A stretch of DNA of 64,000 nucleotides. It comes from Allodiplogaster sudhausi (lineage: Eukaryota > Nematoda > Chromadorea > Rhabditida > Diplogasteridae). Location of the stretch: assembly GCA_945643635.1 (NCBI GenBank), contig CALZFC010000058.1, positions 248,001 to 312,000 on the forward strand, read 5' to 3'. The notes under the pieces are model-generated. The model had not been told where the DNA came from. It saw nothing but the letters and a program-made list of their open reading frames with translations, and searched no databases. A program made the translations under genes and the position numbers. This document shows positions 3,194 to 35,540 of this stretch, one piece after another (the stretch's first letter is position 1; each line of letters begins with the position of its first letter).

Positions 3194-3675
3194 TGCTTTT
3201 CTTCCTATTTCGAAGTCAATTAAGAATATAAATGGGTTGTGAGAACAAAGGATAAGATGAAGACCGAATACGAATTACCATAATGCAAGCATTAATGATA
3301 GCATTACATTAGGATATTTTTTTTTTAATCTAGTGGATTGCGAAGTCAGACTCTTTTGTAACATCATAGCCACGTAAAACAACTCGAGAACTCAGCAATT
3401 GTTCTTAAATTAAATTCGAACTGGATTTTCAGCTAGCCTATTTTCACGCTTTGTGGGTCTGTGTTCTCTCTCTCATGTCAGTCCATCTCCTATTTAGTTT
3501 AAATTCTTCTCACTGTGTTTGCATATTTCCTTTTTGTATATTATAAACTAAAAATACACCTTACGATGCCTTAGTCGACGTATGATGTTTTTGCACTATT
3601 TTGTGATATTTGTACAGTGTCAGAAAAAATTCAAACATAGTTTTCGTGATGTTTTAGCGAAATATGCAAACAAAA

Positions 3676-4022
3676 TGAGCGGGAGTCGTGAGGTATCGGG
3701 GAGGCTGATCGGCGGGGGCGAACTCGCGTGCGCGACCCGGCCACTGTCAAGGCGCGTAACCTTTTGCCTGCTTCCTTTCGGACCTGAGCCGTCCGGTTCT
3801 CCATGGCCACCCGGCCCCGCCCGTCCTCCGACCGGCGACGCCCCGCTTGGCGCGGACGCCCGGTCTCCGCTGGCCGCACCACCGACAGGACTCCTCCTCT
3901 CACTCACTCCATCCGCTCTGCGGCCTAGACACTGGCTCACAGGCGCCCGCCACGACGCCCCGCAAACAGCAAAAGGACACGGGGAACCGTGTGATAGGGC
4001 AGGAAAGATGAGAGAATGTGAA
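3676..4022 (+). repeat. GC-rich dispersed element, copy 1
   Basis: A GC-rich block of about 347 bp in A/T-rich surroundings. It begins atgagcgggagtcgtgaggt and ends near gagagaatgtga. A second copy lies in the opposite orientation at 37788-38142, nearly identical apart from a 9-bp insertion in copy 2 and scattered substitutions. There are no obvious terminal inverted repeats. The open frames in it (3582-4202 and others) are not conserved as reading frames between the copies. It may be a SINE-like or other non-autonomous element. Confidence 0.75.
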
Positions 4023-9836: not shown

Positions 9837-9890
9837 GGCGTATGTTCAGAAAGTGGGCGTGGCAATGAAGAGTGGGCGTGGCTGCTGGCC
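9837..9890 (+). repeat. Duplicated GTGGGCGTGGC motif
   Basis: The motif gtgggcgtggc occurs twice, about 21 bp apart, just beyond the stop codon of the pseudokinase gene. It is a GC/CACCC-box type sequence. Its meaning is unknown. Confidence 0.5.
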
Positions 9891-9896
9891 CCTCTT

Positions 9897-12800
9897 CTAC
9901 TTCTTCTCACTCTTCTTCTGGCTCTTGAACTTCTCGCCCTTCTCCTGGTCATCCTTCTTTGACTTGTCGATGCCTTCGTTCTAAATTATATTTTTATTAA
10001 TGAAATGGGACTCAAAATCTTTAATAACAAAGCATTGAATCTTGCAAACGCCTAAAATCTGAAATATATTACCAAAAGCGTATTGAGACGCTTGCGTGCA
10101 GTTGACGTGCCCGAATCCGAAGTCTTCTGCGCAATCTGCTGTAATTGAAGACAATTTAATCTTCGCGCGCATTTGTATTTGAATAGACCATTGGAATGTC
10201 GTCGTCGCTCGTCTCGTCGACGATGGTTCCGGCCGTGGACTCCGCTGGCTCGCTCTGCTGGCGAGTGTAGGCGCGGTTGATCTGGCTGAAAAAGGAAATT
10301 TACGTGTTACTTTGCGCTTCCAATTGTGAAATGTTTGTATAATGCAGCATTATTTATGTAACAAATCAACCCAGCCCCAAGAAAGCGACTCTGACTCAGC
10401 GAATCCGAAAATGCTCGAATTGCTCTTGCGCCCCTCGGCCTGGTTCGCGATTGCCTTGCACAGTTCGGAGTACTCGACTGGCTCGGTGCTGAGAAGAGAA
10501 AAGATTGTTCGTTCTACAGAATATTGAACCTTCTCTCAAACATATAGAAGAGAAGCACTGGTCTCGCATTCATAACCGACATTGGATTCCTGTCGATGAA
10601 CAGCATCTCGTTCTTCGGTGCTGTCTTCAGGACGAACTGGCAATTAAAAAAAAATATATTATTGCATTTTAATAAATAGCACTTTTCGCATGATTTATTT
10701 GATGTGAAAGTTGCTGCCAGACCTTGAAGAGATCGCTGTAGCCATTGAAGAGAACTGGCTTTTCCTTGCGCAGGCTGCGCAGCTCCTTCGTGTGCATGAA
10801 CTCATGCTTCTTCTTGAGAATCTACAATAAGAAGGTATAAGAGATTAGACAGTGATCACATTATTCCAATGCATTCAAATGCTGATCAATGCGTACTTCT
10901 TGCTGATTGGCCCGAAGCTGTTGCTTGGTCTGTTTATCCTTCGCCGATCTCAATTAATTTACGCATTATTTTTTAAACAAATTCAACCATCTACTCTCAG
11001 CATTGAGCATAATTTCTACTAGTTTTGGAATTCCCGCTCTCTTGCTTCTTACTCCATGTTATCGTGGCCGACAGGGTTGAGAATGATCCAGGGCAGTCTG
11101 CCAATGGCCATGTCGGCCAGCATGAAGAGGACGGAGATCACGTCATCGCCTGGAGTCTGGCGGCGCATCTCACAATCAGTGGCGACCATCGGGGAGCTGC
11201 AAGCGAAGGATTCGTGCAGAACTTGGTAATTCGAAAAATCATGGCGTGACTCACCAATATTTGCCGTTGTAAACCTTGGCAAAGCGACTGCGCGGCGGCA
11301 CTCCGTCCGTGGTACGGTAGCGGCACGCAAACGGAAGCGAAGTGATTGCGATGCTGGAAGTCAATCAATACCTTTATGAATTATTCTAAATTTTATATTG
11401 TGCACTGCGCTAAACTCGACGATATATTAATTGTATTCTAGTGTATGATTTTAATTTAGTTAATAGAAAAATTAGGTTTTAACCTCTCCATGAGAGAGGC
11501 CTCCGTGGTCTGAAGCAGGCAAGAAGGGTGCATACGAAGGGAGAAGCGGGCCAGCGACACCTCAAAAAGAGTAAGGTAGAATTGTTTTATTGGACTTATT
11601 GTAACACTTATTGTTAGCTAAGTGCTCAACGGACCTCTCGCATAATCCAGCCAATCTCATGAAGAGTGCGAAGCGCCTGAAAAGGAAGATTGCCGCACAT
11701 GTAATCTTATCGAAGCATTCAATTGGTGTTCGTCAACTTTTTTCTATTATTTATAGCCTTTTTGCGTCCACGACGGAAGTCCTTGGTACATCTATCAAGG
11801 AGTTTGGTCCTCGGAGAATAGTTATATATTTTGCTATGAGAGTTTCACTTTGTTTATCATGTTCGCTTTTCCTTCAAAGATTCCTTCGAAGAAGGAATCG
11901 ATAAGATTTTTATTCTTACGCGGATGCAGCCAATGGCGAGGAAGCAGGCGGTAGGCAAGGGAACCATGTCGTAGCGAGGCACGCGCATCACGTAGTCCAG
12001 AGACACCGGGAACCTGTCGAACAAAATTAATCAGATATCGTGGATACTGTAGCCATTGCCTTTATGTACATAAGTTAATACCGTACTTCCAGAAACAAAA
12101 CACAAGAAAATGGACCGGCCTCTCTAAGAGAAAGTAGGGGCGAGGGTTGAGCAAAGGGCGTACGTCGCAGTTGTCGTTCTTGGTCTACAAAGGAATATTT
12201 AGCTGAATTTATGATTCTGTTAAGGAATTACTAAATATTTCATTGATGTTAATTTGATCCAAGAAAAACAGCCAGCAGGACTGACAGTGAAATTGAGAGA
12301 TGTGAAAGAGCCATATCCCAGGATTTCGGCAAAATGTCGGCGTTTCCTGGAAGCGAAAATGATAAAAATAATGAACTTCAGAGAGCTCATAATCTTATAA
12401 TAAAGGAGATGGTGGACGGGTGGGCGGGGCTAATTGAAATGGCGAACAGATAGTCAAGGGCGAAGCTCTCATCGAGAAGGGTGGGCGGGGCTAATTGAAA
12501 TGGCGTACAGATAGTCAAGGGCGAAGCTCTCATCGAGAGGGGTGGGCGGGGCTAATTGAAATGGCGTACAGATAGTCAAGGGCGAAGCTCTCATCGAGAA
12601 GGGTGGGCGGGGCTAATTGAAATGGCGTACAGATAGTCAAGGGCGAAGCTCTCATCGAGAAGGGTGGGCGGGGCTAATTGAAATGGCGTACAGATAGTCA
12701 AGGGCGAAGCTCTCATCGAGAGGGGTGGGCGGGGCTAATTGAAATGGCGTACAGATAGTCAAGGGCGAAGCTCTCATCGAGAGGGGTGGGCGGGGCTAAT

Positions 12801-15800
12801 TGAAATGGCGTACAGATAGTCAAGGGCGAAGCTCTCATCGAGAGGGGTTTGCGGGGCTAATTGAAATGGCGTACAGATAGTCAAGGGCGAAGCTCTCATC
12901 GAGAGGGGTGGGCGGGGCTAATTGAAATGGCGTACAGATAGTCAAGGGCGAAGCTCTCATCGAGAGGGGTGGGCGGGGCTAATTGAAATGGCGTACAGAT
13001 AGTCAAGGGCGAAGCTCTCATCGAGAAGGGTGGGCGGGGCTAATTGAAATGGCGTACAGATAGTCAAGGGCGAAGCTCTCATCGAGAGGGGTTTGCGGGG
13101 CTAATTGAAATGGCGTACAGATAGTCAAGGGCGAAGCTCTCATCGAGAAGGGTGGGCGGGGCTAATTGAAATGGCGTACAGATAGTCAAGGGCGAAGCTC
13201 TCATCGAGAGGGGTGGGCGGGGCTAATTGAAATGGCGTACAGATAGTCAAGGGCGAAGCTCTCATCGAGAAGGGTGGGCGGGGCTAATTGAAATGGCGTA
13301 CAGATAGTCAAGGGCGAAGCTCTCATCGAGAAGGGTTTGCGGGGCTAATTGAAATGGCGTACAGATAGTCAAGGGCGAAGCTCTCATCGAGAGGGGTGGG
13401 CGGGGCTAATTGAAATGGCGTACAGATAGTCAAGGGCGAAGCTCTCATCGAGAGGGGTGGGCGGGGCTAATTGAAATGGCGTACAGATAGTCAAGGGCGA
13501 AGCTCTCATCGAGAAGGGTGGGCGGGGCTAATTGAAATGGCGTACAGATAGTCAAGGGCGAAGCTCTCATCGAGAAGGGTGGGCGGGGCTAATTGAAATG
13601 GCGTACATATAGTCAAGGGCGAAGCTCTCATCGAGAAGGGTGGGCGGGGCTAATTGAAATGACGTACAGATAGTCAAGGGCGAAGCTCTCATCGAGAGGG
13701 GTTTGCGGGGCTAATTGAAATGGCGTACAGATAGTCAAGGGCGAAGCTCTCATCGAGAGGGGTGGGCGGGGCTAATTGAAATGGCGTACAGATAGTCAAG
13801 GGCGAAGCTCTCATCGAGAAGGGTGGGCGGGGCTAATTGAAATGGCGTACAGATAGTCAAGGGCGAAGCTCTCATCGAGAGGGGTTTGCGGGGCTAATTG
13901 AAATGGCGTACAGATAGTCAAGGGCGAAGCTCTCATCGAGAGGGGTGGGCGGGGCTAATTGAAATGGCGTACAGATAGTCAAGGGCGAAGCTCTCATCGA
14001 GAAGGGTGGGCGGGGCTAATTGAAATGGCGTACAGATAGTCAAGGGCGAAGCTCTCATCGAGAGGGGTTTGCGGGGCTAATTGAAATGGCGTACAGATAG
14101 TCAAGGGCGAAGCTCTCATCGAGAAGGGTGGGCGGGGCTAATTGAAATGGCGTACAGATAGTCAAGGGCGAAGCTCTCATCGAGAGGGGTGGGCGGGGCT
14201 AATTGAAATGGCGTACAGATAGTCAAGGGCGAAGCTCTCATCGAGAAGGGTGGGCGGGGCTAATTGAAATGGCGTACAGATAGTCAAGGGCGAAGCTCTC
14301 ATCGAGAAGGGTGGGCGGGGCTAATTGAAATGGCGTACAGATAGTCAAGGGCGAAGCTCTCATCGAGAGGGGTGGGCGGGGCTAATTGAAATGGCGTACA
14401 GATAGTCAAGGGCGAAGCTCTCATCGAGAAGGGTGGGCGGGGCTAATTGAAATGGCGTACAGATAGTCAAGGGCGAAGCTCTCATCGAGAAGGGTTTGCG
14501 GGGCTAATTGAAATGGCGTACAGATAGTCAAGGGCGAAGCTCTCATCGAGAGGGGTGGGCGGGGCTAATTGAAATGGCGTACAGATAGTCAAGGGCGAAG
14601 CTCTCATCGAGAGGGGTGGGCGGGGCTAATTGAAATGGCGTACAGATAGTCAAGGGCGAAGCTCTCATCGAGAAGGGTGGGCGGGGCTAATTGAAATGGC
14701 GTACAGATAGTCAAGGGCGAAGCTCTCATCGAGAAGGGTGGGCGGGGCTAATTGAAATGGCGTACAGATAGTCAAGGGCGAAGCTCTCATCGAGAAGGGT
14801 GGGCGGGGCTAATTGAAATGACGTACAGATAGTCAAGGGCGAAGCTCTCATCGAGAGGGGTTTGCGGGGCTAATTGAAATGGCGTACAGATAGTCAAGGG
14901 CGAAGCTCTCATCGAGAGGGGTGGGCGGGGCTAATTGAAATGGCGTACAGATAGTCAAGGGCGAAGCTCTCATCGAGAAGGGTGGGCGGGGCTAATTGAA
15001 ATGGCGTACAGATAGTCAAGGGCGAAGCTCTCATCGAGAGGGGTTTGCGGGGCTAATTGAAATGGCGTACAGATAGTCAAGGGCGAAGCTCTCATCGAGA
15101 GGGGTGGGCGGGGCTAATTGAAATGGCGTACAGATAGTCAAGGGCGAAGCTCTCATCGAGAAGGGTGGGCGGGGCTAATTGAAATGGCGTACAGATAGTC
15201 AAGGGCGAAGCTCTCATCGAGAGGGGTTTGCGGGGCTAATTGAAATGGCGTACAGATAGTCAAGGGCGAAGCTCTCATCGAGAAGGGTGGGCGGGGCTAA
15301 TTGAAATGGCGTACAGATAGTCAAGGGCGAAGCTCTCATCGAGAAGGGTGGGCGGGGCTAATTGAAATGGCGTACAGATAGTCAAGGGCGAAGCTCTCAT
15401 CGAGAAGGGTGGGCGGGGCTAATTGAAATGGCGTACAGATAGTCAAGGGCGAAGCTCTCATCGAGAAGGGTGGGCGGGGCTAATTGAAATGACGTACAGA
15501 TAGTCAAGGGCGAAGCTCTCATCGAGAGGGGTTTGCGGGGCTAATTGAAATGGCGTACAGATAGTCAAGGGCGAAGCTCTCATCGAGAGGGGTGGGCGGG
15601 GCTAATTGAAATGGCGTACAGATAGTCAAGGGCGAAGCTCTCATCGAGAAGGGTGGGCGGGGCTAATTGAAATGGCGTACAGATAGTCAAGGGCGAAGCT
15701 CTCATCGAGAGGGGTTTGCGGGGCTAATTGAAATGGCGTACAGATAGTCAAGGGCGAAGCTCTCATCGAGAGGGGTGGGCGGGGCTAATTGAAATGGCGT

Positions 15801-18800
15801 ACAGATAGTCAAGGGCGAAGCTCTCATCGAGAAGGGTGGGCGGGGCTAATTGAAATGGCGTACAGATAGTCAAGGGCGAAGCTCTCATCGAGAGGGGTTT
15901 GCGGGGCTAATTGAAATGGCGTACAGATAGTCAAGGGCGAAGCTCTCATCGAGAAGGGTGGGCGGGGCTAATTGAAATGGCGTACAGATAGTCAAGGGCG
16001 AAGCTCTCATCGAGAGGGGTGGGCGGGGCTAATTGAAATGGCGTACAGATAGTCAAGGGCGAAGCTCTCATCGAGAAGGGTGGGCGGGGCTAATTGAAAT
16101 GGCGTACAGATAGTCAAGGGCGAAGCTCTCATCGAGAAGGGTGGGCGGGGCTAATTGAAATGGCGTACAGATAGTCAAGGGCGAAGCTCTCATCGAGAAG
16201 GGTGGGCGGGGCTAATTGAAATGGCGTACAGATAGTCAAGGGCGAAGCTCTCATCGAGAGGGGTTTGCGGGGCTAATTGAAATGGCGTACAGATAGTCAA
16301 GGGCGAAGCTCTCATCGAGAAGGGTGGGCGGGGCTAATTGAAATGGCGTACAGATAGTCAAGGGCGAAGCTCTCATCGAGAGGGGTTTGCGGGGCTAACT
16401 GAAATGGCGTACAGATAGTCAAGGGCGAAGCTCTCATCGAGAGGGGTGGGCGGGGCTAATTAAAATGGCGTACAGATAGTCAAGGGCGAAGCTCTCATCG
16501 AGAGGGGTGGGCGGGGCTAATTGAAATGGCGTACAGATAGTCAAGGGCGAAGCTCTCATCGAGAAGGGTGGGCGGGGCTAATTGAAATGGCGTACAGATA
16601 GTCAAGGGCGAAGCTCTCATCGAGAGGGGTTTGCGGGGCTAATTGAAATGGCGTACAGATAGTCAAGGGCGAAGCTCTCATCGAGAGGGGTGGGCGGGGC
16701 TAATTGAAATGGCGTACAGATAGTCAAGGGCGAAGCTCTCATCGAGAGGGGTTTGCGGGGCTAATTGAAATGGCGTACAGATAGTCAAGGGCGAAGCTCT
16801 CATCGAGAGGGGTGGGCGGGGCTAATTGAAATGGCGTACAGATAGTCAAGGGCGAAGCTCTCATCGAGAGGGGTGGGCGGGGCTAATTGAAATGGCGTAC
16901 AGATAGTCAAGGGCGAAGCTCTCATCGAGAAGGGTGGGCGGGGCTAATTGAAATGGCGTACAGATAGTCAAGGGCGAAGCTCTCATCGAGAAGGGTGGGC
17001 GGGGCTAATTGAAATGGCGTACAGATAGTCAAGGGCGAAGCTCTCATCGAGAGGGGTTTGCGGGGCTAATTGAAATGGCGTACAGATAGTCAAGGGCGAA
17101 GCTCTCATCGAGAGGGGTGGGCGGGGCTAATTGAAATGGCGTACAGATAGTCAAGGGCGAAGCTCTCATCGAGAAGGGTGGGCGGGGCTAATTGAAATGG
17201 CGTACAGATAGTCAAGGGCGAAGCTCTCATCGAGAGGGGTTTGCGGGGCTAATTGAAATGGCGTACAGATAGTCAAGGGCGAAGCTCTCATCGAGAGGGG
17301 TGGGTGGGGCTAATTGAAATGGCGTACAGATAGTCAAGGGCGAAGCTCTCATCGAGAGGGGTGGGCGGGACTAATTGAAATGGCGTACAGATAGTCAAGG
17401 GCGAAGCTCTCATCGAGAGGGGTGGGCGGGGCTAATTGAAATGGCGTACAGATAGTCAAGGGCGAAGCTCTCATCGAGAGGGGTGGGCGGGGCTAATTGA
17501 AATGGCGTACAGATAGTCAAGGGCGAAGCTCTCATCGAGAGGGGTGGGCGGGGCTAATTGAAATGGCGTACAGATAGTCAAGGGCGAAGCTCTCATCGAG
17601 AGGGGTGGGCGGGGCTAATTGAAATGGCGTACAGATAGTCAAGGGCGAAGCTCTCATCGAGAAGGGTGGGCGGGGCTAATTGAAATGGCGTACAGATAGT
17701 CAAGGGCGAAGCTCTCATCGAGAAGGGTGGGCGGGGCTAATTGAAATGGCGTACAGATAGTCAAGGGCGAAGCTCTCATCGAGAGGGGTTTGCGGGGCTA
17801 ATTGAAATGGCGTACAGATAGTCAAGGGCGAAGCTCTCATCGAGAGGGGTTTGCGGGGCTAATTGAAATGGCGTACAGATAGTCAAGGGCGAAGCTCTCA
17901 TCGAGAGGGGTGGGCGGGGCTAATTGAAATGGCGTACAGATAGTCAAGGGCGAAGCTCTCATCGAGAAGGGTGGGCGGGGCTAATTGAAATGGCGTACAG
18001 ATAGTCAAGGGCGAAGCTCTCATCGAGAGGGGTTTGCGGGGCTAATTGAAATGGCGTACAGATTGTCAAGGGCGAAGCTCTCATCGAGAGGGGTGGGCGG
18101 GGCTAATTGAAATGGCGTACAGATAGTCAAGGGCGAAGCTCTCATCGAGAAGGGTTTGCGGGGCTAATTGAAATGGCGTACAGATAGTCAAGGGCGAAGC
18201 TCTCATCGAGAAGGGTGGGCGGGGCTAATTGAAATGGCGTACAGATAGTCAAGGGCGAAGCTCTCATCGAGAGGGGTTTGCGGGGCTAATTGAAATGGCG
18301 TACAGATAGTCAAGGGCGAAGCTCTCATCGAGAGGGGTGGGCGGGGCTAATTGAAATGGCGTACAGATAGTCAAGGGCGAAGCTCTCATCGAGAGGGGTG
18401 GGCGGGGCTAATTGAAATGGCGTACAGATAGTCAAGGGCGAAGCTCTCATCGAGAAGGGTGGGCGGGGCTAATTGAAATGGCGTACAGATAGTCAAGGGC
18501 GAAGCTCTCATCGAGAGGGGTTTGCGGGGCTAATTGAAATGGCGTACAGATTGTCAAGGGCGAAGCTCTCATCGAGAGGGGTGGGCGGGGCTAATTGAAA
18601 TGGCGTACAGATAGTCAAGGGCGAAGCTCTCATCGAGAAGGGTTTGCGGGGCTAATTGAAATGGCGTACAGATAGTCAAGGGCGAAGCTCTCATCGAGAA
18701 GGGTGGGCGGGGCTAATTGAAATGGCGTACAGATAGTCAAGGGCGAAGCTCTCATCGAGAGGGGTTTGCGGGGCTAATTGAAATGGCGTACAGATAGTCA

Positions 18801-21800
18801 AGGGCGAAGCTCTCATCGAGAGGGGTGGGCGGGGCTAATTGAAATGGCGTACAGATAGTCAAGGGCGAAGCTCTCATCGAGAAGGGTGGGCGGGGCTAAT
18901 TGAAATGGCGTACAGATAGTCAAGGGCGAAGCTCTCATCGAGAGGGGTTTGCGGGGCTAATTGAAATGGCGTACAGATAGTCAAGGGCGAAGCTCTCATC
19001 GAGAGGGGTGGGTGGGGCTAATTGAAATGGCGTACAGATAGTCAAGGGCGAAGCTCTCATCGAGAGGGGTGGGCGGGACTAATTGAAATGGCGTACAGAT
19101 AGTCAAGGGCGAAGCTCTCATCGAGAGGGGTGGGCGGGGCTAATTGAAATGGCGTACAGATAGTCAAGGGCGAAGCTCTCATCGAGAGGGGTGGGCGGGG
19201 CTAATTGAAATGGCGTACAGATAGTCAAGGGCGAAGCTCTCATCGAGAGGGGTGGGCGGGGCTAATTGAAATGGCGTACAGATAGTCAAGGGCGAAGCTC
19301 TCATCGAGAGGGGTGGGCGGGGCTAATTGAAATGGCGTACAGATAGTCAAGGGCGAAGCTCTCATCGAGAAGGGTGGGCGGGGCTAATTGAAATGGCGTA
19401 CAGATAGTCAAGGGCGAAGCTCTCATCGAGAGGGGTTTGCGGGGCTAATTGAAATGGCGTACAGATAGTCAAGGGCGAAGCTCTCATCGAGAAGGGTGGG
19501 CGGGGCTAATTGAAATGGCGTACAGATAGTCAAGGGCGAAGCTCTCATCGAGAGGGGTGGGCGGGGCTAATTGAAATGGCGTACAGATAGTCAAGGGCGA
19601 AGCTCTCATCGAGAAGGGTGGGCGGGGCTAATTGAAATGGCGTACAGATAGTCAAGGGCGAAGCTCTCATCGAGAGGGGTTTGCGGGGCTAATTGAAATG
19701 GCGTACAGATAGTCAAGGGCGAAGCTCTCATCGAGAGGAGTGGGCGGGGCTAATTGAAATGGCGTACAGATAGTCAAGGGCGAAGCTCTCATCGAGAGGG
19801 GTGGGCGGGGCTAATTGAAATGGCGTACAGATAGTCAAGGGCGAAGCTCTCATCGAGAGGGGTTTGCGGGGCTAATTGAAATGGCGTACAGATAGTCAAG
19901 GGCGAAGCTCTCATCGAGAGGGGTGGGCGGGGCTAATTGAAATGGCGTACAGATAGTCAAGGGCGAAGCTCTCATCGAGAAGGGTGGGCGGGGCTAATTG
20001 AAATGGCGTACAGATAGTCAAGGGCGAAGCTCTCATCGAGAGGGGTTTGCGGGGCTAATTGAAATGGCGTACAGATAGTCAAGGGCGAAGCTCTCATCGA
20101 GAGGGGTGGGCGGGGCTAATTGAAATGGCGTACAGATAGTCAAGGGCGAAGCTCTCATCGAGAAGGGTGGGCGGGGCTAATTGACATGGCGTACAGATAG
20201 TCAAGGGCGAAGCTCTCATCGAGAGGGGTTTGCGGGGCTAATTGAAATGGCGTACAGATAGTCAAGGGCGAAGCTCTCATCGAGAAGGGTGGGCGGGGCT
20301 AATTGAAATGGCGTACAGATAGTCAAGGGCGAAGCTCTCATCGAGAGGGGTGGGCGGGGCTAATTGAAATGGCGTACAGATAGTCAAGGGCGAAGCTCTC
20401 ATCGAGAAGGGTGGGCGGGGCTAATTGAAATGGCGTACAGATAGTCAAGGGCGAAGCTCTCATCGAGAAGGGTGGGCGGGGCTAATTGAAATGGCGTACA
20501 GATAGTCAAGGGCGAAGCTCTCATCGAGAAGGGTGGGCGGGGCTAATTGAAATGGCGTACAGATAGTCAAGGGCGAAGCTCTCATCGAGAGGGGTTTGCG
20601 GGGCTAATTGAAATGGCGTACAGATAGTCAAGGGCGAAGCTCTCATCGAGAAGGGTGGGCGGGGCTAATTGAAATGGCGTACAGATAGTCAAGGGCGAAG
20701 CTCTCATCGAGAGGGGTTTGCGGGGCTAACTGAAATGGCGTACAGATAGTCAAGGGCGAAGCTCTCATCGAGAGGGGTGGGCGGGGCTAATTAAAATGGC
20801 GTACAGATAGTCAAGGGCGAAGCTCTCATCGAGAGGGGTGGGCGGGGCTAATTGAAATGGCGTACAGATAGTCAAGGGCGAAGCTCTCATCGAGAAGGGT
20901 GGGCGGGGCTAATTGAAATGGCGTACAGATAGTCAAGGGCGAAGCTCTCATCGAGAGGGGTTTGCGGGGCTAATTGAAATGGCGTACAGATAGTCAAGGG
21001 CGAAGCTCTCATCGAGAGGGGTGGGCGGGGCTAATTGAAATGGCGTACAGATAGTCAAGGGCGAAGCTCTCATCGAGAGGGGTTTGCGGGGCTAATTGAA
21101 ATGGCGTACAGATAGTCAAGGGCGAAGCTCTCATCGAGAGGGGTGGGCGGGGCTAATTGAAATGGCGTACAGATAGTCAAGGGCGAAGCTCTCATCGAGA
21201 GGGGTGGGCGGGGCTAATTGAAATGGCGTACAGATAGTCAAGGGCGAAGCTCTCATCGAGAAGGGTGGGCGGGGCTAATTGAAATGGCGTACAGATAGTC
21301 AAGGGCGAAGCTCTCATCGAGAAGGGTGGGCGGGGCTAATTGAAATGGCGTACAGATAGTCAAGGGCGAAGCTCTCATCGAGAGGGGTTTGCGGGGCTAA
21401 TTGAAATGGCGTACAGATAGTCAAGGGCGAAGCTCTCATCGAGAGGGGTGGGCGGGGCTAATTGAAATGGCGTACAGATAGTCAAGGGCGAAGCTCTCAT
21501 CGAGAAGGGTGGGCGGGGCTAATTGAAATGGCGTACAGATAGTCAAGGGCGAAGCTCTCATCGAGAGGGGTTTGCGGGGCTAATTGAAATGGCGTACAGA
21601 TAGTCAAGGGCGAAGCTCTCATCGAGAGGGGTGGGTGGGGCTAATTGAAATGGCGTACAGATAGTCAAGGGCGAAGCTCTCATCGAGAGGGGTGGGCGGG
21701 GCTAATTGAAATGGCGTACAGATAGTCAAGGGCGAAGCTCTCATCGAGAGGGGTGGGCGGGGCTAATTGAAATGGCGTACAGATAGTCAAGGGCGAAGCT

Positions 21801-24800: not shown

Positions 24801-27800
24801 GGGTGGGCGGGGCTAATTGAAATGGCGTACAGATAGTCAAGGGCGAAGCTCTCATCGAGAGGGGTGGGCGGGGCTAATTGAAATGGCGTACAGATAGTCA
24901 AGGGCGAAGCTCTCATCGAGAGGGGTGGGCGGGGCTAATTGAAATGGCGTACAGATAGTCAAGGGCGAAGCTCTCATCGAGAGGGGTGGGCGGGGCTAAT
25001 TGAAATGGCGTACAGATAGTCAAGGGCGAAGCTCTCATCGAGAGGGGTGGGCGGGGCTAATTGAAATGGCGTACAGATAGTCAAGGGCGAAGCTCTCATC
25101 GAGAGGGGTGGGCGGGGCTAATTGAAATGGCGTACAGATAGTCAAGGGCGAAGCTCTCATCGAGAGGGGTGGGCGGGGCTAATTGAAATGGCGTACAGAT
25201 AGTCAAGGGCGAAGCTCTCATCGAGAGGGGTGGGCGGGGCTAATTGAAATGGCGTACAGATAGTCAAGGGCGAAGCTCTCATCGAGAGGGGTGGGCGGGG
25301 CTAATTGAAATGGCGTACAGATAGTCAAGGGCGAAGCTCTCATCGAGAGGGGTGGGCGGGGCTAATTGAAATGGCGTACAGATAGTCAAGGGCGAAGCTC
25401 TCATCGAGAGGGGTGGGCGGGGCTAATTTAAATGGCGTACAGATAGTCAAGGGCGAAGCTCTCATCGAGAAGGGTGGGCGGGGCTAATTGAAATGGCGTA
25501 CAGATAGTCAAGGGCGAAGCTCTCATCGAGAAGGGTGGGCGGGGCTAATTGAAATGACGTACAGATAGTCAAGGGCGAAGCTCTCATCGAGAGGGGTTTG
25601 CGGGGCTAATTGAAATGGCGTACAGATAGTCAAGGGCGAAGCTCTCATCGAGAGGGGTGGGCGGGGCTAATTGAAATGGCGTACAGATAGTCAAGGGCGA
25701 AGCTCTCATCGAGAAGGGTGGGCGGGGCTAATTGAAATGGCGTACAGATAGTCAAGGGCGAAGCTCTCATCGAGAGGGGTGGGTGGGGCTAATTGAAATG
25801 GCGTACAGATAGTCAAGGGCGAAGCTCTCATCGAGAGGGGTGGGCGGGGATAATTGAAATGGCGTACAGATAGTCAAGGGCGAAGCTCTCATCGAGAGGG
25901 GTGGGCGGGGCTAATTGAAATGGCGTACAGATAGTCAAGGGCGAAGCTCTCATCGAGAGGGGTGGGCGGGGCTAATTGAAATGGCGTACAGATAGTCAAG
26001 GGCGAAGCTCTCATCGAGAGGGGTGGGCGGGGCTAATTGAAATGGCGTACAGATAGTCAAGGGCGAAGCTCTCATCGAGAGGGGTTTGCGGGGCTAATTG
26101 AAATGGCGTACAGATAGTCAAGGGCGAAGCTCTCATCGAGAGGGGTGGGCGGGGCTAATTGAAATGGCGTACAGATAGTCAAGGGCGAAGCTCTCATCGA
26201 GAGGGGTGGGCGGGGCTAATTGAAATGGCGTACAGATAGTCAAGGGCGAAGCTCTCATCGAGAAGGGTGGGCGGGGCTAATTGAAATGGCGTACAGATAG
26301 TCAAGGGCGAAGCTCTCATCGAGAGGGGTTGCGGGGCTAATTGAAATGGCGTACAGATAGTCAAGGGCGAAGCTCTCATCGAGAAGGGTGGGCGGGGCTA
26401 ATTGAAATGGCGTACAGATAGTCAAGGGCGAAGCTCTCATCGAGAGGGGTGGGCGGGGCTAATTGAAATGGCGTACAGATAGTCAAGGGCGAAGCTCTCA
26501 TCGAGAGGGGTGGGCGGGGCTAATTGAAATGGCGTACAGATAGTCAAGGGCGAAGCTCTCATCGAGAAGGGTGGGCGGGGCTAATTGAAATGGCGTACAG
26601 ATAGTCAAGGGCGAAGCTCTCATCGAGAGGGGTTTGCGGGGCTAATTGAAATGGCGTACAGATAGTCAAGGGCGAAGCTCTCATCGAGAAGGGTGGGCGG
26701 GGCTAATTGAAATGGCGTACAGATAGTCAAGGGCGAAGCTCTCATCGAGAAGGGTGGGCGGGGCTAATTTAAATGACGTACAGATAGTCAAGGGCGAAGC
26801 TCTCATCGAGAGGGGTTTGCGGGGCTAATTGAAATGGCGTACAGATAGTCAAGGGCGAAGCTCTCATCGAGAGGGGTGGGCGGGGCTAATTGAAATGGCG
26901 TACAGATAGTCAAGGGCGAAGCTCTCATCGAGAAGGGTGGGCGGGGCTAATTGAAATGGCGTACAGATAGTCAAGGGCGAAGCTCTCATCGAGAGGGGTT
27001 TGCGGGGCTAATTGAAATGGCGTACAGATAGTCAAGGGCGAAGCTCTCATCGAGAGGGGTGGGTGGGGCTAATTGAAATGGCGTACAGATAGTCAAGGGC
27101 GAAGCTCTCATCGAGAGGGGTGGGCGGGGCTAATTGAAATGGCGTACAGATAGTCAAGGGCGAAGCTCTCATCGAGAGGGGTGGGCGGGGCTAATTGAAA
27201 TGGCGTACAGATAGTCAAGGGCGAAGCTCTCATCGAGAAGGGTGGGCGGGGCTAATTGAAATGGCGTACAGATAGTCAAGGGCGAAGCTCTCATCGAGAG
27301 GGGTTTGCGGGGCTAATTGAAATGGCGTACAGATAGTCAAGGGCGAAGCTCTCATCGAGAGGGGTGGGCGGGGCTAATTGAAATGGCGTACAGATAGTCA
27401 AGGGCGAAGCTCTCATCGAGAGGGGTTTGCGGGGCTAATTGAAATGGCGTACAGATAGTCAAGGGCGAAGCTCTCATCGAGAGGGGTGGGCGGGGCTAAT
27501 TGAAATGGCGTACAGATAGTCAAGGGCGAAGCTCTCATCGAGAGGGGTGGGCGGGGCTAATTGAAATGGCGTACAGATAGTCAAGGGCGAAGCTCTCATC
27601 GAGAAGGGTGGGCGGGGCTAATTGAAATGGCGTACAGATAGTCAAGGGCGAAGCACTCATCGAGAAGGGTGGGCGGGGCTAATTGAAATGGCGTACAGAT
27701 AGTCAAGGGCGAAGCTCTCATCGAGAGGGGTTTGCGGGGCTAATTGAAATGGCGTACAGATAGTCAAGGGCGAAGCTCTCATCGAGAGGGGTTTGCGGGG

Positions 27801-30800
27801 CTAATTGAAATGGCGTACAGATAGTCAAGGGCGAAGCTCTCATCGAGAAGGGTGGGCGGGGCTAATTGAAATGGCGTACAGATAGTCAAGGGCGAAGCTC
27901 TCATCGAGAGGAGTGGGCGGGGCTAATTGAAATGGCGTACAGATAGTCAAGGGCGAAGCTCTCATCGAGAAGGGTGGGCGGGGCTAATTGAAATGGCGTA
28001 CAGATAGTCAAGGGCGAAGCTCTCATCGAGAGGGGTTTGCGGGGCTAATTGAAATGGCGTACAGATAGTCAAGGGCGAAGCTCTCATCGAGAAGGGTGGG
28101 CGGGGCTAATTGAAATGGCGTACAGATAGTCAAGGGCGAAGCTCTCATCGAGAGGAGTGGGCGGGGCTAATTGAAATGGCGTACAGATAGTCAAGGGCGA
28201 AGCTCTCATCGAGAAGGGTGGGCGGGGCTAATTGAAATGGCGTACAGATAGTCAAGGGCGAAGCTCTCATCGAGAGGGGTTTGCGGGGCTAATTGAAATG
28301 GCGTACAGATAGTCAAGGGCGAAGCTCTCATCGAGAAGGGTGGGCGGGGCTAATTGAAATGGCGTACAGATAGTCAAGGGCGAAGCTCTCATCGAGAGGG
28401 GTTTGCGGGGCTAATTGAAATGGCGTACAGATAGTCAAGGGCGAAGCTCTCATCGAGAAGGGTGGGCGGGGCTAATTGAAATGGCGTACAGATAGTCAAG
28501 GGCGAAGCTCTCATCGAGAAGGGTGGGCGGGGCTAATTGAAATGGCGTACAGATAGTCAAGGGCGAAGCTCTCATCGAGAGGGGTTTGCGGGGCTAATTG
28601 AAATGGCGTACAGATAGTCAAGGGCGAAGCTCTCATCGAGAGGGGTGGGCGGGGCTAATTGAAATGGCGTACAGATAGTCAAGGGCGAAGCTCTCATCGA
28701 GAAGGGTGGGCGGGGCTAATTGAAATGGCGTACAGATAGTCAAGGGCGAAGCTCTCATCGAGAGGGGTTTGCGGGGCTAATTGAAATGGCGTACAGATAG
28801 TCAAGGGCGAAGCTCTCATCGAGAGGGGTGGGTGGGGCTAATTGAAATGGCGTACAGATAGTCAAGGGCGAAGCTCTCATCGAGAGGGGTGGGCGGGGCT
28901 AATTGAAATGGCGTACAGATAGTCAAAGGCGAAGCTCTCATCGAGAGGGGTGGGCGGGGCTAATTGAAATGGCGTACAGATAGTCAAGGGCGAAGCTCTC
29001 ATCGAGAAGGGTGGGCGGGGCTAATTGAAATGGCGTACAGATAGTCAAGGGCGAAGCTCTCATCGAGAAGGGTGGGCGGGGCTAATTGAAATGGCGTACA
29101 GATAGTCAAGGGCGAAGCTCTCATCGAGAGGGGTGGGCGGAGCTAATTGAAATGGCGTACAGATAGTCAAGGGCGAAGCTCTCATCGAGAAGGGTGGGCG
29201 GGGCTAATTGAAATGGCGTACAGATAGTCAAGGGCGAAGCTCTCATCGAGAGGGGTTTGCGGGGCTAATTGAAATGGCGTACAGATAGTCAAGGGCGAAG
29301 CTCTCATCGAGAGGAGTGGGCGGGGCTAATTGAAATGGCGTACAGATAGTCAAGGGCGAAGCTCTCATCGAGAGGGGTGGGCGGGGCTAATTGAAATGGC
29401 GTACAGATAGTCAAGGGCGAAGCTCTCATCGAGAGGGGTTTGCGGGGCTAATTGAAATGGCGTACAGATAGTCAAGGGCGAAGCTCTCATCGAGAGGGGT
29501 GGGCGGGGCTAATTGAAATGGCGTACAGATAGTCAAGGGCGAAGCTCTCATCGAGAGGGGTGGGCGGGGCTAATTGAAATGGCGTACAGATAGTCAAGGG
29601 CGAAGCTCTCATCGAGAAGGGTGGGCGGGGCTAATTGAAATGGCGTACAGATAGTCAAGGGCGAAGCTCTCATCGAGAAGGGTGGGCGGGGCTAATTTAA
29701 ATGGCGTACAGATAGTCAAGGGCGAAGCTCTCATCGAGAGGGGTTTGCGGGGCTAATTGAAATAGCGTACAGATAGTCAAGGGCGAAGCTCTCATCGAGA
29801 GGGGTGGGCGGGGCTAATTAAAATGGCGTACAGATAGTCAAGGGCGAAGCTCTCATCGAGAAGGGTGGGCGGGGCTAATTGAAATGGCGTACAGATAGTC
29901 AAGGGCGAAGCTCTCATCGAGAGGGGTTTGCGGGGCTAATTGAAATGGCGTACAGATAGTCAAGGGCGAAGCTCTCATCGAGAAGGGTGGGCGGGGCTAA
30001 TTGAAATGGCGTACAGATAGTCAAGGGCGAAGCTCTCATCGAGAAGGGTGGGCGGGGCTAATTGAAATGGCGTACAGATAGTCAAGGGCGAAGCTCTCAT
30101 CGAGAGGGGTTTGCGGGGCTAATTGAAATGGCGTACAGATAGTCAAGGGCGAAGCTCTCATCGAGAGGGGTGGGCGGGGCTAATTGAAATGGCGTACAGA
30201 TAGTCAAGGGCGAAGCTCTCATCGAGAAGGGTGGGCGGGGCTAATTGAAATGGCGTACAGATAGTCAAGGGCGAAGCTCTCATCGAGAGGGGTTTGCGGG
30301 GCTAATTGAAATGGCGTACAGATAGTCAAGGGCGAAGCTCTCATCGAGAGGGGTGGGTGGGGCTAATTGAAATGGCGTACAGATAGTCAAGGGCGAAGCT
30401 CTCATCGAGAGGGGTGGGCGGGACTAATTGAAATGGCGTACAGATAGTCAAGGGCGAAGCTCTCATCGAGAGGGGTGGGCGGGGCTAATTGAAATGGCGT
30501 ACAGATAGTCAAGGGCGAAGCTCTCATCGAGAGGGGTGGGCGGGGCTAATTGAAATGGCGTACAGATAGTCAAGGGCGAAGCTCTCATCGAGAGGGGTGG
30601 GCGGGGCTAATTGAAATGGCGTACAGATAGTCAAGGGCGAAGCTCTCATCGAGAGGGGTGGGCGGGGCTAATTGAAATGGCGTACAGATAGTCAAGGGCG
30701 AAGCTCTCATCGAGAAGGGTGGGCGGGGCTAATTGAAATGGCGTACAGATAGTCAAGGGCGAAGCTCTCATCGAGAGGGGTTTGCGGGGCTAATTGAAAT

Positions 30801-33800
30801 GGCGTACAGATAGTCAAGGGCGAAGCTCTCATCGAGAAGGGTGGGCGGGGCTAATTGAAATGGCGTACAGATAGTCAAGGGCGAAGCTCTCATCGAGAGG
30901 GGTGGGCGGGGCTAATTGAAATGGCGTACAGATAGTCAAGGGCGAAGCTCTCATCGAGAAGGGTGGGCGGGGCTAATTGAAATGGCGTACAGATAGTCAA
31001 GGGCGAAGCTCTCATCGAGAGGGGTTTGCGGGGCTAATTGAAATGGCGTACAGATAGTCAAGGGCGAAGCTCTCATCGAGAGGAGTGGGCGGGGCTAATT
31101 GAAATGGCGTACAGATAGTCAAGGGCGAAGCTCTCATCGAGAGGGGTGGGCGGGGCTAATTGAAATGGCGTACAGATAGTCAAGGGCGAAGCTCTCATCG
31201 AGAGGGGTTTGCGGGGCTAATTGAAATGGCGTACAGATAGTCAAGGGCGAAGCTCTCATCGAGAGGGGTGGGCGGGGCTAATTGAAATGGCGTACAGATA
31301 GTCAAGGGCGAAGCTCTCATCGAGAGGGGTGGGCGGGGCTAATTGAAATGGCGTACAGATAGTCAAGGGCGAAGCTCTCATCGAGAAGGGTGGGCGGGGC
31401 TAATTGAAATGGCGTACAGATAGTCAAAGGCGAAGCTCTCATCGAGAGGGGTGGGCGGGGCTAATTGAAATGGCGTACAGATAGTCAAGGGCGAAGCTCT
31501 CATCGAGAAGGGTGGGCGGGGCTAATTGAAATGGCGTACAGATAGTCAAGGGCGAAGCTCTCATCGAGAGGGGTTTGCGGGGCTAATTGAAATGGCGTAC
31601 AGATAGTCAAGGGCGAAGCTCTCATCGAGAGGGGTGGGTGGGGCTAATTGAAATGGCGTACAGATAGTCAAGGGCGAAGCTCTCATCGAGAGGGGTGGGC
31701 GGGGCTAATTGAAATGGCGTACAGATAGTCAAGGGCGAAGCTCTCATCGAGAGGGGTGGGCGGGGCTAATTGAAATGGCGTACAGATAGTCAAGGGCGAA
31801 GCTCTCATCGAGAGGGGTGGGCGGGGCTAATTGAAATGGCGTACAGATAGTCAAGGGCGAAGCTCTCATCGAGAGGGGTTTGCGGGGCTAATTGAAATGG
31901 CGTACAGATAGTCAAGGGCGAAGCTCTCATCGAGAGGGGTGGGCGGGGCTAATTAAAATGGCGTACAGATAGTCAAGGGCGAAGCTCTCATCGAGAAGGG
32001 TGGGCGGGGCTAATTGAAATGGCGTACAGATAGTCAAGGGCGAAGCTCTCATCGAGAGGGGTTTGCGGGGCTAATTGAAATGGCGTACAGATAGTCAAGG
32101 GCGAAGCTCTCATCGAGAAGGGTGGGCGGGGCTAATTGAAATGGCGTACAGATAGTCAAGGGCGAAGCTCTCATCGAGAAGGGTGGGCGGGGCTAATTGA
32201 AATGGCGTACAGATAGTCAAGGGCGAAGCTCTCATCGAGAGGGGTTTGCGGGGCTAATTGAAATGGCGTACAGATAGTCAAGGGCGAAGCTCTCATCGAG
32301 AGGGGTGGGCGGGGCTAATTGAAATGGCGTACAGATAGTCAAGGGCGAAGCTCTCATCGAGAAGGGTGGGCGGGGCTAATTGAAATGGCGTACAGATAGT
32401 CAAGGGCGAAGCTCTCATCGAGAGGGGTTTGCGGGGCTAATTGAAATGGCGTACAGATAGTCAAGGGCGAAGCTCTCATCGAGAGGGGTGGGTGGGGCTA
32501 ATTGAAATGGCGTACAGATAGTCAAGGGCGAAGCTCTCATCGAGAGGGGTGGGCGGGACTAATTGAAATGGCGTACAGATAGTCAAGGGCGAAGCTCTCA
32601 TCGAGAGGGGTGGGCGGGGCTAATTGAAATGGCGTACAGATAGTCAAGGGCGAAGCTCTCATCGAGAGGGGTGGGCGGGGCTAATTGAAATGGCGTACAG
32701 ATAGTCAAGGGCGAAGCTCTCATCGAGAGGGGTGGGCGGGGCTAATTGAAATGGCGTACAGATAGTCAAGGGCGAAGCTCTCATCGAGAGGGGTGGGCGG
32801 GGCTAATTGAAATGGCGTACAGATAGTCAAGGGCGAAGCTCTCATCGAGAAGGGTGGGCGGGGCTAATTGAAATGGCGTACAGATAGTCAAGGGCGAAGC
32901 TCTCATCGAGAGGGGTTTGCGGGGCTAATTGAAATGGCGTACAGATAGTCAAGGGCGAAGCTCTCATCGAGAAGGGTGGGCGGGGCTAATTGAAATGGCG
33001 TACAGATAGTCAAGGGCGAAGCTCTCATCGAGAGGGGTGGGCGGGGCTAATTGAAATGGCGTACAGATAGTCAAGGGCGAAGCTCTCATCGAGAAGGGTG
33101 GGCGGGGCTAATTGAAATGGCGTACAGATAGTCAAGGGCGAAGCTCTCATCGAGAGGGGTTTGCGGGGCTAATTGAAATGGCGTACAGATAGTCAAGGGC
33201 GAAGCTCTCATCGAGAGGAGTGGGCGGGGCTAATTGAAATGGCGTACAGATAGTCAAGGGCGAAGCTCTCATCGAGAGGGGTGGGCGGGGCTAATTGAAA
33301 TGGCGTACAGATAGTCAAGGGCGAAGCTCTCATCGAGAGGGGTTTGCGGGGCTAATTGAAATGGCGTACAGATAGTCAAGGGCGAAGCTCTCATCGAGAG
33401 GGGTGGGCGGGGCTAATTGAAATGGCGTACAGATAGTCAAGGGCGAAGCTCTCATCGAGAGGGGTGGGCGGGGCTAATTGAAATGGCGTACAGATAGTCA
33501 AGGGCGAAGCTCTCATCGAGAAGGGTGGGCGGGGCTAATTGAAATGGCGTACAGATAGTCAAAGGCGAAGCTCTCATCGAGAGGGGTGGGCGGGGCTAAT
33601 TGAAATGGCGTACAGATAGTCAAGGGCGAAGCTCTCATCGAGAAGGGTGGGCGGGGCTAATTGAAATGGCGTACAGATAGTCAAGGGCGAAGCTCTCATC
33701 GAGAGGGGTTTGCGGGGCTAATTGAAATGGCGTACAGATAGTCAAGGGCGAAGCTCTCATCGAGAGGGGTGGGTGGGGCTAATTGAAATGGCGTACAGAT

Positions 33801-35540
33801 AGTCAAGGGCGAAGCTCTTATCGAGAGGGGTGGGCGGGGCTAATTGAAATGGCGTACAGATAGTCAAGGGCGAAGCTCTCATCGAGAGGGGTGGGCGGGG
33901 CTAATTGAAATGGCGTACAGATAGTCAAGGGCGAAGCTCTCATCGAGAGGGGTGGGCGGGGCTAATTGAAATGGCGTACAGATAGTCAAGGGCGAAGCTC
34001 TCATCGAGAGGGGTGGGCGGGGCTAATTGAAATGGCGTACAGATAGTCAAGGGCGAAGCTCTCATCGAGAGGGGTGGGCGGGGCTAATTGAAATGGCGTA
34101 CAGATAGTCAAGGGCGAAGCTCTCATCGAGAGGGGTGAGCGGGGCTAATTGAAATCGCGTACAGATAGTCAAGGGCGAAGCTCTCATCGAGAGGGGTGGG
34201 CGGGGCTAATTGAAATGGCGTACAGATAGTCAAGGGCGAAGCTCTCATCGAGAGGGGTGGGCGGGGCTAATTGAAATGGCGTACAGATAGTCAAGGGCGA
34301 AGCTCTCATCGAGAGGGGTGGGCGGGGCTAATTGAAATGGCGTACAGATAGTCAAGGGCGAAGCTCTCATCGAGAGGGGTGGGCGGGGCTAATTGAAATG
34401 GCGTACAGATAGTCAAGGGCGAAGCTCTCATCGAGAGGGGTGGGCGGGGCTAATTGAAATGGCGTACAGATAGTCAAGGGCGAAGCTCTCATCGAGAGGG
34501 GTGGGCGGGGCTAATTGAAATGGCGTACAGATAGTCAAGGGCGAAGCTCTCATCGAGAGGGGTGGGCGGGGCTAATTGAAATGGCGTACAGATAGTCAAG
34601 GGCGAAGCTCTCATCGAGAGGGGTGGGCGGGGCTAATTGAAATGGCGTACAGATAGTCAAGGGCGAAGCTCTCATCGAGAGCGCGGAACGCGGCCGCCTC
34701 AATTAGAAGCTGCCATTCGTCCACCTTCGTCGAGTGCCAGGTCATCTTCAGCGCTGCGAGCTGGCCTTGGTCGAAGTAGAACTGGAAGAGGAAGAGGAGA
34801 GAGAATCAGTGAGGACGAATAGAGATAAGAGAGGGTTAGAGAAGGACCTTTTCCTCAATCGGATGAGGAATCCGTTGGACGTCGAATTCGAGGAGGTGCT
34901 TGTCCACGCGAACCTGCCGCATCCCAAGCAGGCGATATCTGTAAATTGAAAATTTTTGTAGACAAATTTGAAATTAATCTTCATTACTTCTTCAACAAAA
35001 AATTGAATACTCTCTTAAAATGATTGAAATAATAAACATCATTTCCGCATTCATCAACTTTTTATAGCGGCAGTGTTGAACCAAACAAGCAAATGTTTGC
35101 CCTTCCCTTCCTCTGACCTGACTGGCAAGCCCTCAGGCATGATGTGGTCGAAATCGCCGCACATCTTGAAGGCCGCGGGCAGTGGATTCTAGAGAAAAAA
35201 AACTTGTTTTTAGTTAATTTTTATTAACTACATCTTTTATATAGACATAAATTCTACTTTTTATTCACTTTCATGCATAGAAACGGTTTTTTTTTCTAGT
35301 AAGCAATGAAAAAATTCGTACATTGCTCTTGTCCGTGCCAAGGACGTCACGGATGAACATGTCCTTCAGCTGTAAATAAACACATCAATCATTTTATTTA
35401 CTTCTTTTTTCCTCTATTTATTTTCTCTCGTTTTCTCTTTGCTCCCTGGTCACACTAAACGTCTGCATGAACTCCGGCATGGCCTTCTCCAGTTCGCCTG
35501 CCTGGGTGTTGCACTTCGTCCGGTCGTCGTCTTCCGCCAT
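9897..35540 (-). CDS. CK1/TTBK-like protein, predicted pseudokinase, with a 22-kb satellite intron
   Basis: Nineteen exons on the minus strand keep one frame (529 residues): 35540-35454, 35369-35322, 35188-35118, 34938-34848, 34781-34651, 12346-12286, 12184-12087, 12013-11920, 11676-11635, 11560-11484, 11353-11255, 11196-11053, 10948-10897, 10821-10723, 10636-10581, 10488-10396, 10285-10189, 10138-10073, 9980-9897. The kinase fold shows as AALKM (the VAIK-type lysine), helix C (LLIEAAAFRALDES), HFAEILGYGSF, ALRTLHEIGW and GDDVISVLFMLADMAIGRLPW, which match the CK1/TTBK pattern. The catalytic HRD is replaced by MRE, the IKPSN loop is lost, and DFG reads SLP (IAITSLPFACRYR), so it is probably a pseudokinase. 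The C-terminal tail is Lys/Glu-rich. The first donor (AGT|GTGACC) is weak, so exon 1 is the least certain. Intron 5 is the satellite array. Confidence 0.8.
12418..34680 (-). repeat. 61-bp satellite array (about 365 copies) inside an intron
   Basis: One unbroken head-to-tail array, about 22.3 kb, with a 61-bp period (one 60-bp copy at about 26331). On the gene strand each unit reads about 31 nt of exon 5 (coding LDESFALDYL), then the donor CT|GTACGCC, then ATTTCAATTAG, then CCCCGCCCACCC. The outermost copy at 34621-34680 is the actual 3' end of exon 5. The innermost copy at about 12420 has GTTCGC in place of GTACGC. Common variants are gagAaggg/gagGgggg and gTTTGcgg/gTGGGcgg. Rarer ones (aaCtgaaa, aattAaaat, gatTgtc, gAcgtac, ggcgggActa) mark duplicated blocks. 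A short hairpin CTCTC-atc-GAGAG is present in many units. The array is inside a transcribed gene rather than in an intergenic region. Confidence 0.97.
34644..34656 (-). other. 5' splice site of the satellite intron
   Basis: On the minus strand CTATCT|GTACGC lies inside the outermost satellite unit. Using it leaves phase 2, and the acceptor at 12347 (ttccag|GAAACG) restores the frame to read DYLKRRHFAEIL, which fits the kinase fold between helix C and strand 4. Confidence 0.7.

What the first reader, a model, noticed from the sequence alone, without database searches (positions are those of the whole stretch)
12418..34680. A satellite made from the exon-intron boundary of the gene that contains it
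The 61-bp unit is about 31 nt of the 3' end of exon 5 of the pseudokinase gene (coding LDESFALDYL) plus about 30 nt of its intron, including the 5' splice site. The real exon end is the outermost unit. So about 365 copies of a coding segment and its splice donor sit inside the intron. I do not know of a described satellite with this origin. The period is not a multiple of three, so it is not an in-frame protein repeat.
Basis: partly seen in the sequence, partly recalled or inferred. Interest (0 to 1): 0.95.

Follow-up and report, generated by a model that had tools for sequence, protein, structure and literature searches.

The report
Splice-donor boundary amplified into intron satellite
In what is most likely a nematode genome, a 61-letter piece straddling the end of a predicted exon and its splice signal stands in 365 head-to-tail copies, making a 22,304-letter intron that was likely about 107 letters before, and only the outermost of the 365 splice signals is predicted to give an intact protein.

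Summary
TRF finds one array at 12418-34681: 365 units of 61 bp, 97% matches. Each unit is the last 31 nt of predicted exon 5 (minus strand) plus the first 30 nt of intron 5 with its GT donor; all 365 GTs are intact, and the real exon end is the outermost unit. Decisive evidence comes from the same assembly (351.8 Mb, most likely nematode): two near-full-length paralogs each have one unit at this place and a 107-nt intron 5, against 22,304 nt here. All 363 genome-wide matches to the unit-unit junction lie in this array, so the satellite most likely grew in place from its host gene. Blocks of up to 30 units recur, which points to multi-unit exchange. The window copy keeps an open frame (dN/dS about 0.4 against the paralogs); in the model, 364 of 365 donors give a stop at codon 156. 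Precedents are the human IFI6 splice-donor minisatellite and single duplications across intron-exon borders, so I call it a new variant of a known kind. No transcripts, reads or related species were available, and no function was shown. A G-rich motif at the unit's intronic edge, modestly enriched in short minisatellites, is a possible trigger.

The parts
12418..34681 (.). Tandem array, 365 units of 61 bp (one of 60 bp); each unit is exon 5 end (31 nt) plus intron 5 start (30 nt), the gene reading on the minus strand
   Evidence: TRF; unit parsing
9897..35540 (-). Host gene model: 19 exons, 532 aa, open frame; distant TTBK-like (pseudo)kinase. The exon 1 donor of the model is uncertain (not conserved in the paralogs)
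   Evidence: Hand-built model with splice sites; aligned over all 19 exons with two paralogs; PDB profile match to tau-tubulin kinase 1, E 1.7e-4
34651..34781 (-). Exon 5, 131 nt; its last 31 nt (34651-34681) are the exonic half of the unit
   Evidence: conserved in paralogs
34621..34681 (-). Outermost unit, holding the real exon 5 end and the only donor that gives a full frame in the model
   Evidence: Donor scan: 1 of 365 donors gives the full frame
12347..34650 (-). Intron 5, 22,304 nt; 107 nt in both near-full-length paralogs
12347..12417 (-). Unique 3' part of intron 5 (71 nt), ending in the acceptor TTCCAG
12282..12346 (-). Exon 6
12418..12478 (-). Innermost unit; the only one whose donor reads GTTCG instead of GTACG
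26265..26324 (.). The only unit of 60 bp (one-base deletion)
34668..34682 (.). GCTCTC-ATC-GAGAGC, a 6-bp inverted repeat at the exon-side breakpoint of the unit; proposed only as a possible trigger
   Evidence: Sequence; DNA fold of 31 nt, 18 of 200 shuffles fold as well, so weak
34623..34633 (+). GTGGGCGGGGC at the intronic edge of the outermost unit (260 exact copies in the array), a dispersed genomic motif; possible trigger

Best explanation
A 22.3-kb array of 365 head-to-tail 61-bp units fills intron 5 of a predicted TTBK-like gene of a probable nematode, each unit being the last 31 nt of predicted exon 5 plus the first 30 nt of the intron with its 5' splice site, and it likely arose in place by tandem duplication of that boundary followed by repeated multi-unit unequal exchange. 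Shown: the array, its register on the exon boundary, no junction match elsewhere in the assembly, the single-unit paralogs with a 107-nt intron, and repeated blocks of up to 30 units. Inferred: the single-unit state is ancestral. Inferred: the first duplication was blunt, since there is no microhomology at the unit ends. Inferred: growth was by unequal exchange or break-induced copying of blocks. Predicted: the array is removed as intron, using the outermost donor (34651/34650) and the acceptor before 12346. The gene would tolerate the array because the extra copies lie on the intron side; use of any inner donor would give a stop at codon 156 and probably nonsense-mediated decay. No function of the array itself is needed by the evidence.
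For: Array and register. Two near-full-length paralogs, each with one unit at the homologous place and intron 5 of 107 nt. Unit-junction pattern: 363 matches in the whole genome, 0 on the other strand, 0 for the reversed-pattern control; 363 in the window, 363 of 363 inside the array. All 364 full-length units carry the window gene's own base (C, column 44) where both paralogs have A. Block repeats: longest 30 units, against at most 10 in 100 shuffles of unit order. Donor scan: 1 of 365 donors gives the full frame and 364 of 365 a stop at codon 156. Host gene under constraint: dN/dS 0.39 and 0.41 against the paralogs, Fisher p about 1e-5.
Against: No transcript data, so the exon 5-6 join is inferred from conserved sites and frame. 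No raw reads, so the copy number could be wrong. The gene model has a weak spot: the donor I chose for exon 1 is not a GT at the aligned place in either paralog. The two paralogs are sisters and count as one comparison, so contraction of an older array to one unit on that side is not strictly excluded. Paralog counts from the DNA and protein searches are lower bounds by the tool's own statement. dN/dS is pairwise and not specific to the window copy after the array arose; on the window branch in exons 11-19 there are 6 nonsynonymous, 4 synonymous and 1 multiple change, too few for a test. Hairpin support at the breakpoint is weak.
Confidence: 0.83

Rival explanations
1. The array acts as a decoy-donor switch: the 364 copies compete for U1 and produce unproductive transcripts, so that copy number tunes the output of the gene.
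For: GT intact in 365 of 365 units; only the outermost donor is productive in the model; an acceptor-like TTTCAATTAG is kept in 353 of 365 units, so most units could also form a 43-nt pseudo-exon.
Against: GT conservation is not more than chance: with 25 variant events, two given columns are missed with probability 0.43. No expression data. Both paralogs do without the array.
Confidence: 0.12
2. The exon was captured from a pre-existing satellite.
For: None found. A short G-rich motif in the intron half (GTGGGCGGGGC) is dispersed in the genome, but a search with two joined units hit only the two paralogs (the tool skips very common words).
Against: All 363 genome-wide matches to the junction lie in this array; both paralogs code LDESFSLDYL in frame with a single unit where the window codes LDESFALDYL.
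Confidence: 0.03
3. The paralogs descend from an array-bearing gene and lost all but one unit.
For: Contraction to one unit would leave the same sequence; the two paralogs are sisters.
Against: The 107-nt intron is of ordinary size for this gene: the other introns are 50-276 nt across three copies. Mean difference among units is 2.4%, well under the 12.8-12.9% intron divergence from the paralogs, although homogenisation could also cause this.
Confidence: 0.07
4. Assembly artefact: the array is much shorter in the animal.
For: No reads could be checked.
Against: 31 unit types, ordered in repeated blocks at several lags and with one indel, and unique flanks on both sides. An assembler loop would be expected to repeat one pattern (inference).
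Confidence: 0.05

Closest known systems
Human IFI6 (6-16/G1P3) minisatellite, Turri et al. 1995 (not held; seen as a citation and one describing passage in PMC4526556, and as a citation in PMC3618361 and PMC2915984)
   Same: A minisatellite whose repeat units serve as splice donor sites.
   Different: IFI6 extra donors are used and give isoforms (passage). Here an inner donor would give a stop in 364 of 365 cases in the model. The unit is 61 bp and the array 22 kb; the much shorter IFI6 unit (12 bp) is recalled.
[quoted passage not shown]
   Same: A tandem duplication that crosses an intron-exon boundary and copies splice signals.
   Different: That is one duplication, at the border of intron 1 and exon 2 (acceptor side), and it makes a new intron. 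Here there are 364 extra copies, at the donor side, and an existing intron is lengthened.
Intronic minisatellites of C. elegans linked to alternative splicing, e.g. CeRep25B (PMC4039745, start of abstract and passages seen)
   Same: Tandem repeats inside nematode introns, with a proposed effect on splicing.
   Different: CeRep25B lies in clusters on two chromosomes and is not described in the passages seen as derived from a host exon. This array is at one locus and derives from its host.

Membership tests
Minisatellite / satellite array | Head-to-tail units, near-identical, long array | tested here: met
   365 units of 61 bp, 97% matches
Minisatellite / satellite array | Satellite family present at several loci (typical, not obligatory) | tested here: not met
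   363 of 363 genome-wide junction matches lie in this array
IFI6-type splice-donor minisatellite | Unit carries a 5' splice site at an exon end | tested here: met
   GT on the minus strand at unit columns 30-29 in 365 of 365
IFI6-type splice-donor minisatellite | Inner donors give coding isoforms | tested here: not met
   In the gene model 364 of 365 give a stop at codon 156; actual use not testable
Intron gain by tandem duplication | Duplication includes splice signals at an exon-intron border | tested here: met
Intron gain by tandem duplication | A new intron is created | tested here: not met
   Intron 5 exists in both paralogs at the same place
TTBK/CK1-like kinase fold | Sequence similarity to solved TTBK kinases | tested here: met
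   Tau-tubulin kinase 1, E 1.7e-4, residues 219-343, profile of two sequences; no Pfam match for the whole protein, and for two middle pieces only one sub-cut-off match, DUF6878 at E 0.088
TTBK/CK1-like kinase fold | Catalytic residues present (active kinase) | tested here: inconclusive
   No HRD or DFG string in residues 1-401 of the model; no residue alignment to a kinase was made
Nematode host | Spliced-leader SL1 genes | tested here: met
   GGTTTAATTACCCAAGTTTGAG in tandem genes of the three loci read; all 26 covariance-model matches are below Rfam's cut-off; the SL1 sequence is recalled

The most novel reading that the evidence does not exclude
A gene has turned its own 5' splice site into a 365-copy array of competing donors with acceptor-like sites between them (about 350 potential 43-nt pseudo-exons), so that copy number sets a splicing toll and proximity to the upstream exon alone decides donor choice. 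This would be a natural splice-site competition experiment, and a route by which a gene can make its own satellite.
Probability: 0.13. Interest if true: 0.85.

Novelty: new variant of a known kind. Interest (0 to 1): 0.62.

Why it matters
The origin of satellites is usually lost. Here the probable seed (one unit in each of two near-full-length paralogs), the host exon and the finished array are all in one assembly, with sharp breakpoints. It shows that a coding boundary can be amplified several hundred-fold while the host gene keeps an open frame, because new copies fall on the intron side. With 365 near-identical donors in one transcript, it would also give a natural test of how the spliceosome picks among equal 5' splice sites.

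Tried and rejected
1) Satellite-first origin: disfavoured, no unit junction outside the array. 2) Selection on the decoy donors: GT is invariant, but the chance probability is 0.43. 3) Lower variation in the exonic half of the unit (7 against 18 variant events; p 0.027): kept as a weak observation, since the G-rich intron half may simply mutate more. 4) Unit frozen by homogenisation: the outermost unit differs from the paralogs at 1 and 2 of 61 sites, less than the neighbouring sites (p 0.011 and 0.047). However, 5.7% and 10.8% of all 61-bp windows in the gene are as similar, so not claimed. 5) G-quadruplex cause: 0 canonical G4 matches on either strand of the array. 6) A minisatellite 'core' motif: GTGGGCGGGGC, at the intronic edge of the unit, occurs 1355 times in the genome (260 in this array) against 39 for the reversed control. 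A first sample of 40 sites (C4, C5) gave 4 in a tandem array and I had set the idea aside. Completing it to all 86 merged sites of the 100 listed rows gives 17 of 86 (C1 12 of 39, C4 and C5 4 of 40, C6 1 of 7), against 653 of 7740 flanking 11-bp stretches (8.4%), p 0.0008; 14 of the 17 arrays have periods of 18-23 bp. So it is a lead, not rejected. The sample covers four contigs only, is uneven, and sites of the reversed motif could not be listed, so a control matched for G-richness is missing. 7) Protein database search with the 531-aa draft: none at E <= 0.001 among the 7994 candidates scored. 8) Literature: searches, judged from the listed rows only (15 of 102, 8 of 9, 10 of 33, 12 of 30, 1 of 1, 2 of 2, 2 of 2, 12 of 155), showed no satellite of this origin and size; Turri 1995 itself is not held.
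Full report
WHAT IS THERE. Tandem Repeats Finder gives one array at 12418-34681, period 61, 365 copies, 97% matches. Parsing by unit gives 365 units, 363 spacings of 61 bp, one of 60 bp (unit at 26265), and 31 distinct sequences; the commonest accounts for 148 units. The longest stop-to-stop frame wholly inside the array is 67 aa, so this is not a protein repeat.

THE GENE. I built a 19-exon model on the minus strand from splice sites and frame: 35540-9897, 532 aa, one open frame. Exon 5 is 34781-34651. Its last 31 nt and the following 30 nt of intron form the outermost unit (34681-34621). Exon 6 begins at 12346. The donor and acceptor of intron 5 are conserved in both paralogs, but the donor I chose for exon 1 is not, so that end of the model is uncertain. 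Pfam gives no match for the whole protein and only one sub-cut-off match for a middle piece (DUF6878, E 0.088). A profile of the window protein and one paralog matches tau-tubulin kinases in the PDB (best E 1.7e-4), so 'TTBK-like' is supported, but weakly. No HRD or DFG string occurs in residues 1-401; that it is a pseudokinase is otherwise by eye.

THE PRE-EXPANSION STATE. The window lies on contig C58 of a 351.8-Mb assembly. A DNA search with the stretch from exon 1 to the part of exon 5 outside the unit finds the window gene and two paralogs, both on C42 (counts are lower bounds). A protein search also finds truncated 3' copies on C58 that begin inside intron 10, downstream of intron 5. In both C42 paralogs the exon 5/intron 5 border holds exactly one unit, 60 and 59 of 61 bases identical to the outermost unit. 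Intron 5 is 107 nt in both, against 22,304 nt in the window. The other 17 introns are 50-276 nt across the three copies (introns 15 and 16 were measured with draft boundaries later shifted by up to 10 bases). Collapsing the array to one unit makes the window gene and paralog L009 align in one stretch of 2937 columns at 86% identity.

NOT A DISPERSED SATELLITE. A 35-base pattern across the unit-unit junction, with up to 3 mismatches, has 363 matches on one strand of the whole genome, 0 on the other and 0 for the reversed control. The window alone has 363, 363 of them inside the array. All 364 full-length units carry the window gene's own base at column 44, where both paralogs differ.

HOW IT GREW. 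The order of unit variants is not random. The longest repeated block is 30 units (at units 286 and 321), against at most 10 in 100 shuffles, and blocks of 11-24 units recur at lags such as 63, 71, 186 and 221. This fits unequal exchange or block copying (inference). The unit ends share no microhomology with the flanks (sequences printed, compared by eye), which suggests a blunt first duplication (inference). A 6-bp inverted repeat sits at the exon-side end, but its fold is not exceptional. At the intron-side end sits GTGGGCGGGGC, a dispersed motif of this genome (1355 sites, 39 for the reversed control). Of 86 merged sites read, 17 lie in short tandem arrays, against 8.4% of flanking stretches (p 0.0008), and one paralog has a 19-bp minisatellite with the related GGGCGTGGC just past its stop codon. 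The motif may therefore have seeded the first duplication; a control matched for G-richness is missing.

WHAT IT SHOULD DO TO SPLICING. All 365 units keep the GT, and the immediate donor context is identical in 355 of 365. In the model only the outermost donor gives the full frame; each of the other 364 gives a stop at codon 156. The most likely mechanism is therefore that the whole array is removed as intron from the outermost donor, and stray use of inner donors is unproductive (prediction; no RNA data). An acceptor-like TTTCAATTAG is intact in 353 of 365 units, so 43-nt pseudo-exons are conceivable.

IS THE HOST GENE ALIVE? Against the paralogs, dN/dS is 0.39 and 0.41 (Fisher p about 1e-5). 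One single-unit paralog (L008) is broken by an in-frame stop in exon 9 and a 16-nt deletion in exon 18, whereas the array-bearing copy is open. The window branch alone has too few changes to test (6 N, 4 S, 1 multiple; exons 11-19).

COMPARISON AND NOVELTY. Repeat units of the human IFI6 minisatellite serve as splice donors (passage), and tandem duplication across an intron-exon border is known in potato RdRp (abstract). What differs here is the scale, the unit that does not keep the reading frame, the single locus, and the un-expanded paralogs in the same genome. I rate it a new variant of a known kind. The organism is most likely a nematode, by tandem SL1 genes (SL1 sequence recalled, covariance scores below Rfam's cut-off); the species was not determined.

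CHANGED ON RE-CHECK. The motif test was completed from 40 to 86 sites and turned from 'not enriched' to 'modestly enriched'; the odds of the main reading are unchanged, since it does not depend on the trigger.

Noticed in passing
L008:2946-3086 (C42); window 9853-9882: A 19-bp minisatellite, 7.4 copies, just past the stop codon of one paralog; the window gene has two copies of its GTGGGCGTGGC core at 9853 and 9872. A second local expansion in the same gene family.
   Followed up: partly
genome-wide; window unit columns 3-13: GTGGGCGTGGC (1664 sites against 85 for the reversed control) and GTGGGCGGGGC (1355 against 39) are strongly over-represented. Part of the first recurs about every 1.2 kb on C1:7.34-7.56 Mb; the second lies in short tandem arrays, mostly of 18-23 bp period, at 17 of 86 sites read. 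Possibly a minisatellite-seeding motif.
   Followed up: partly
C58:757451-764997 (L022, L023): Three truncated 3' copies of the gene, beginning within intron 10; 0 differences among them in the compared stretches, one in opposite orientation.
   Followed up: partly
L008 (C42:1005000-1014500): This paralog has an in-frame stop in exon 9 and a 16-nt deletion in exon 18, so it is probably a pseudogene.
   Followed up: yes
window 3675-3963 (-) and 37844-38142 (+): Two metazoan SRP RNA genes above Rfam's cut-off.
   Followed up: no
window 42220-42579: Tandem 18-bp and 45-bp repeats that look Gly/Pro-coding, collagen-like by eye.
   Followed up: no
L009:7060-7742: A 341-bp unit in two copies, 97% matches, upstream of the other paralog.
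   Followed up: no
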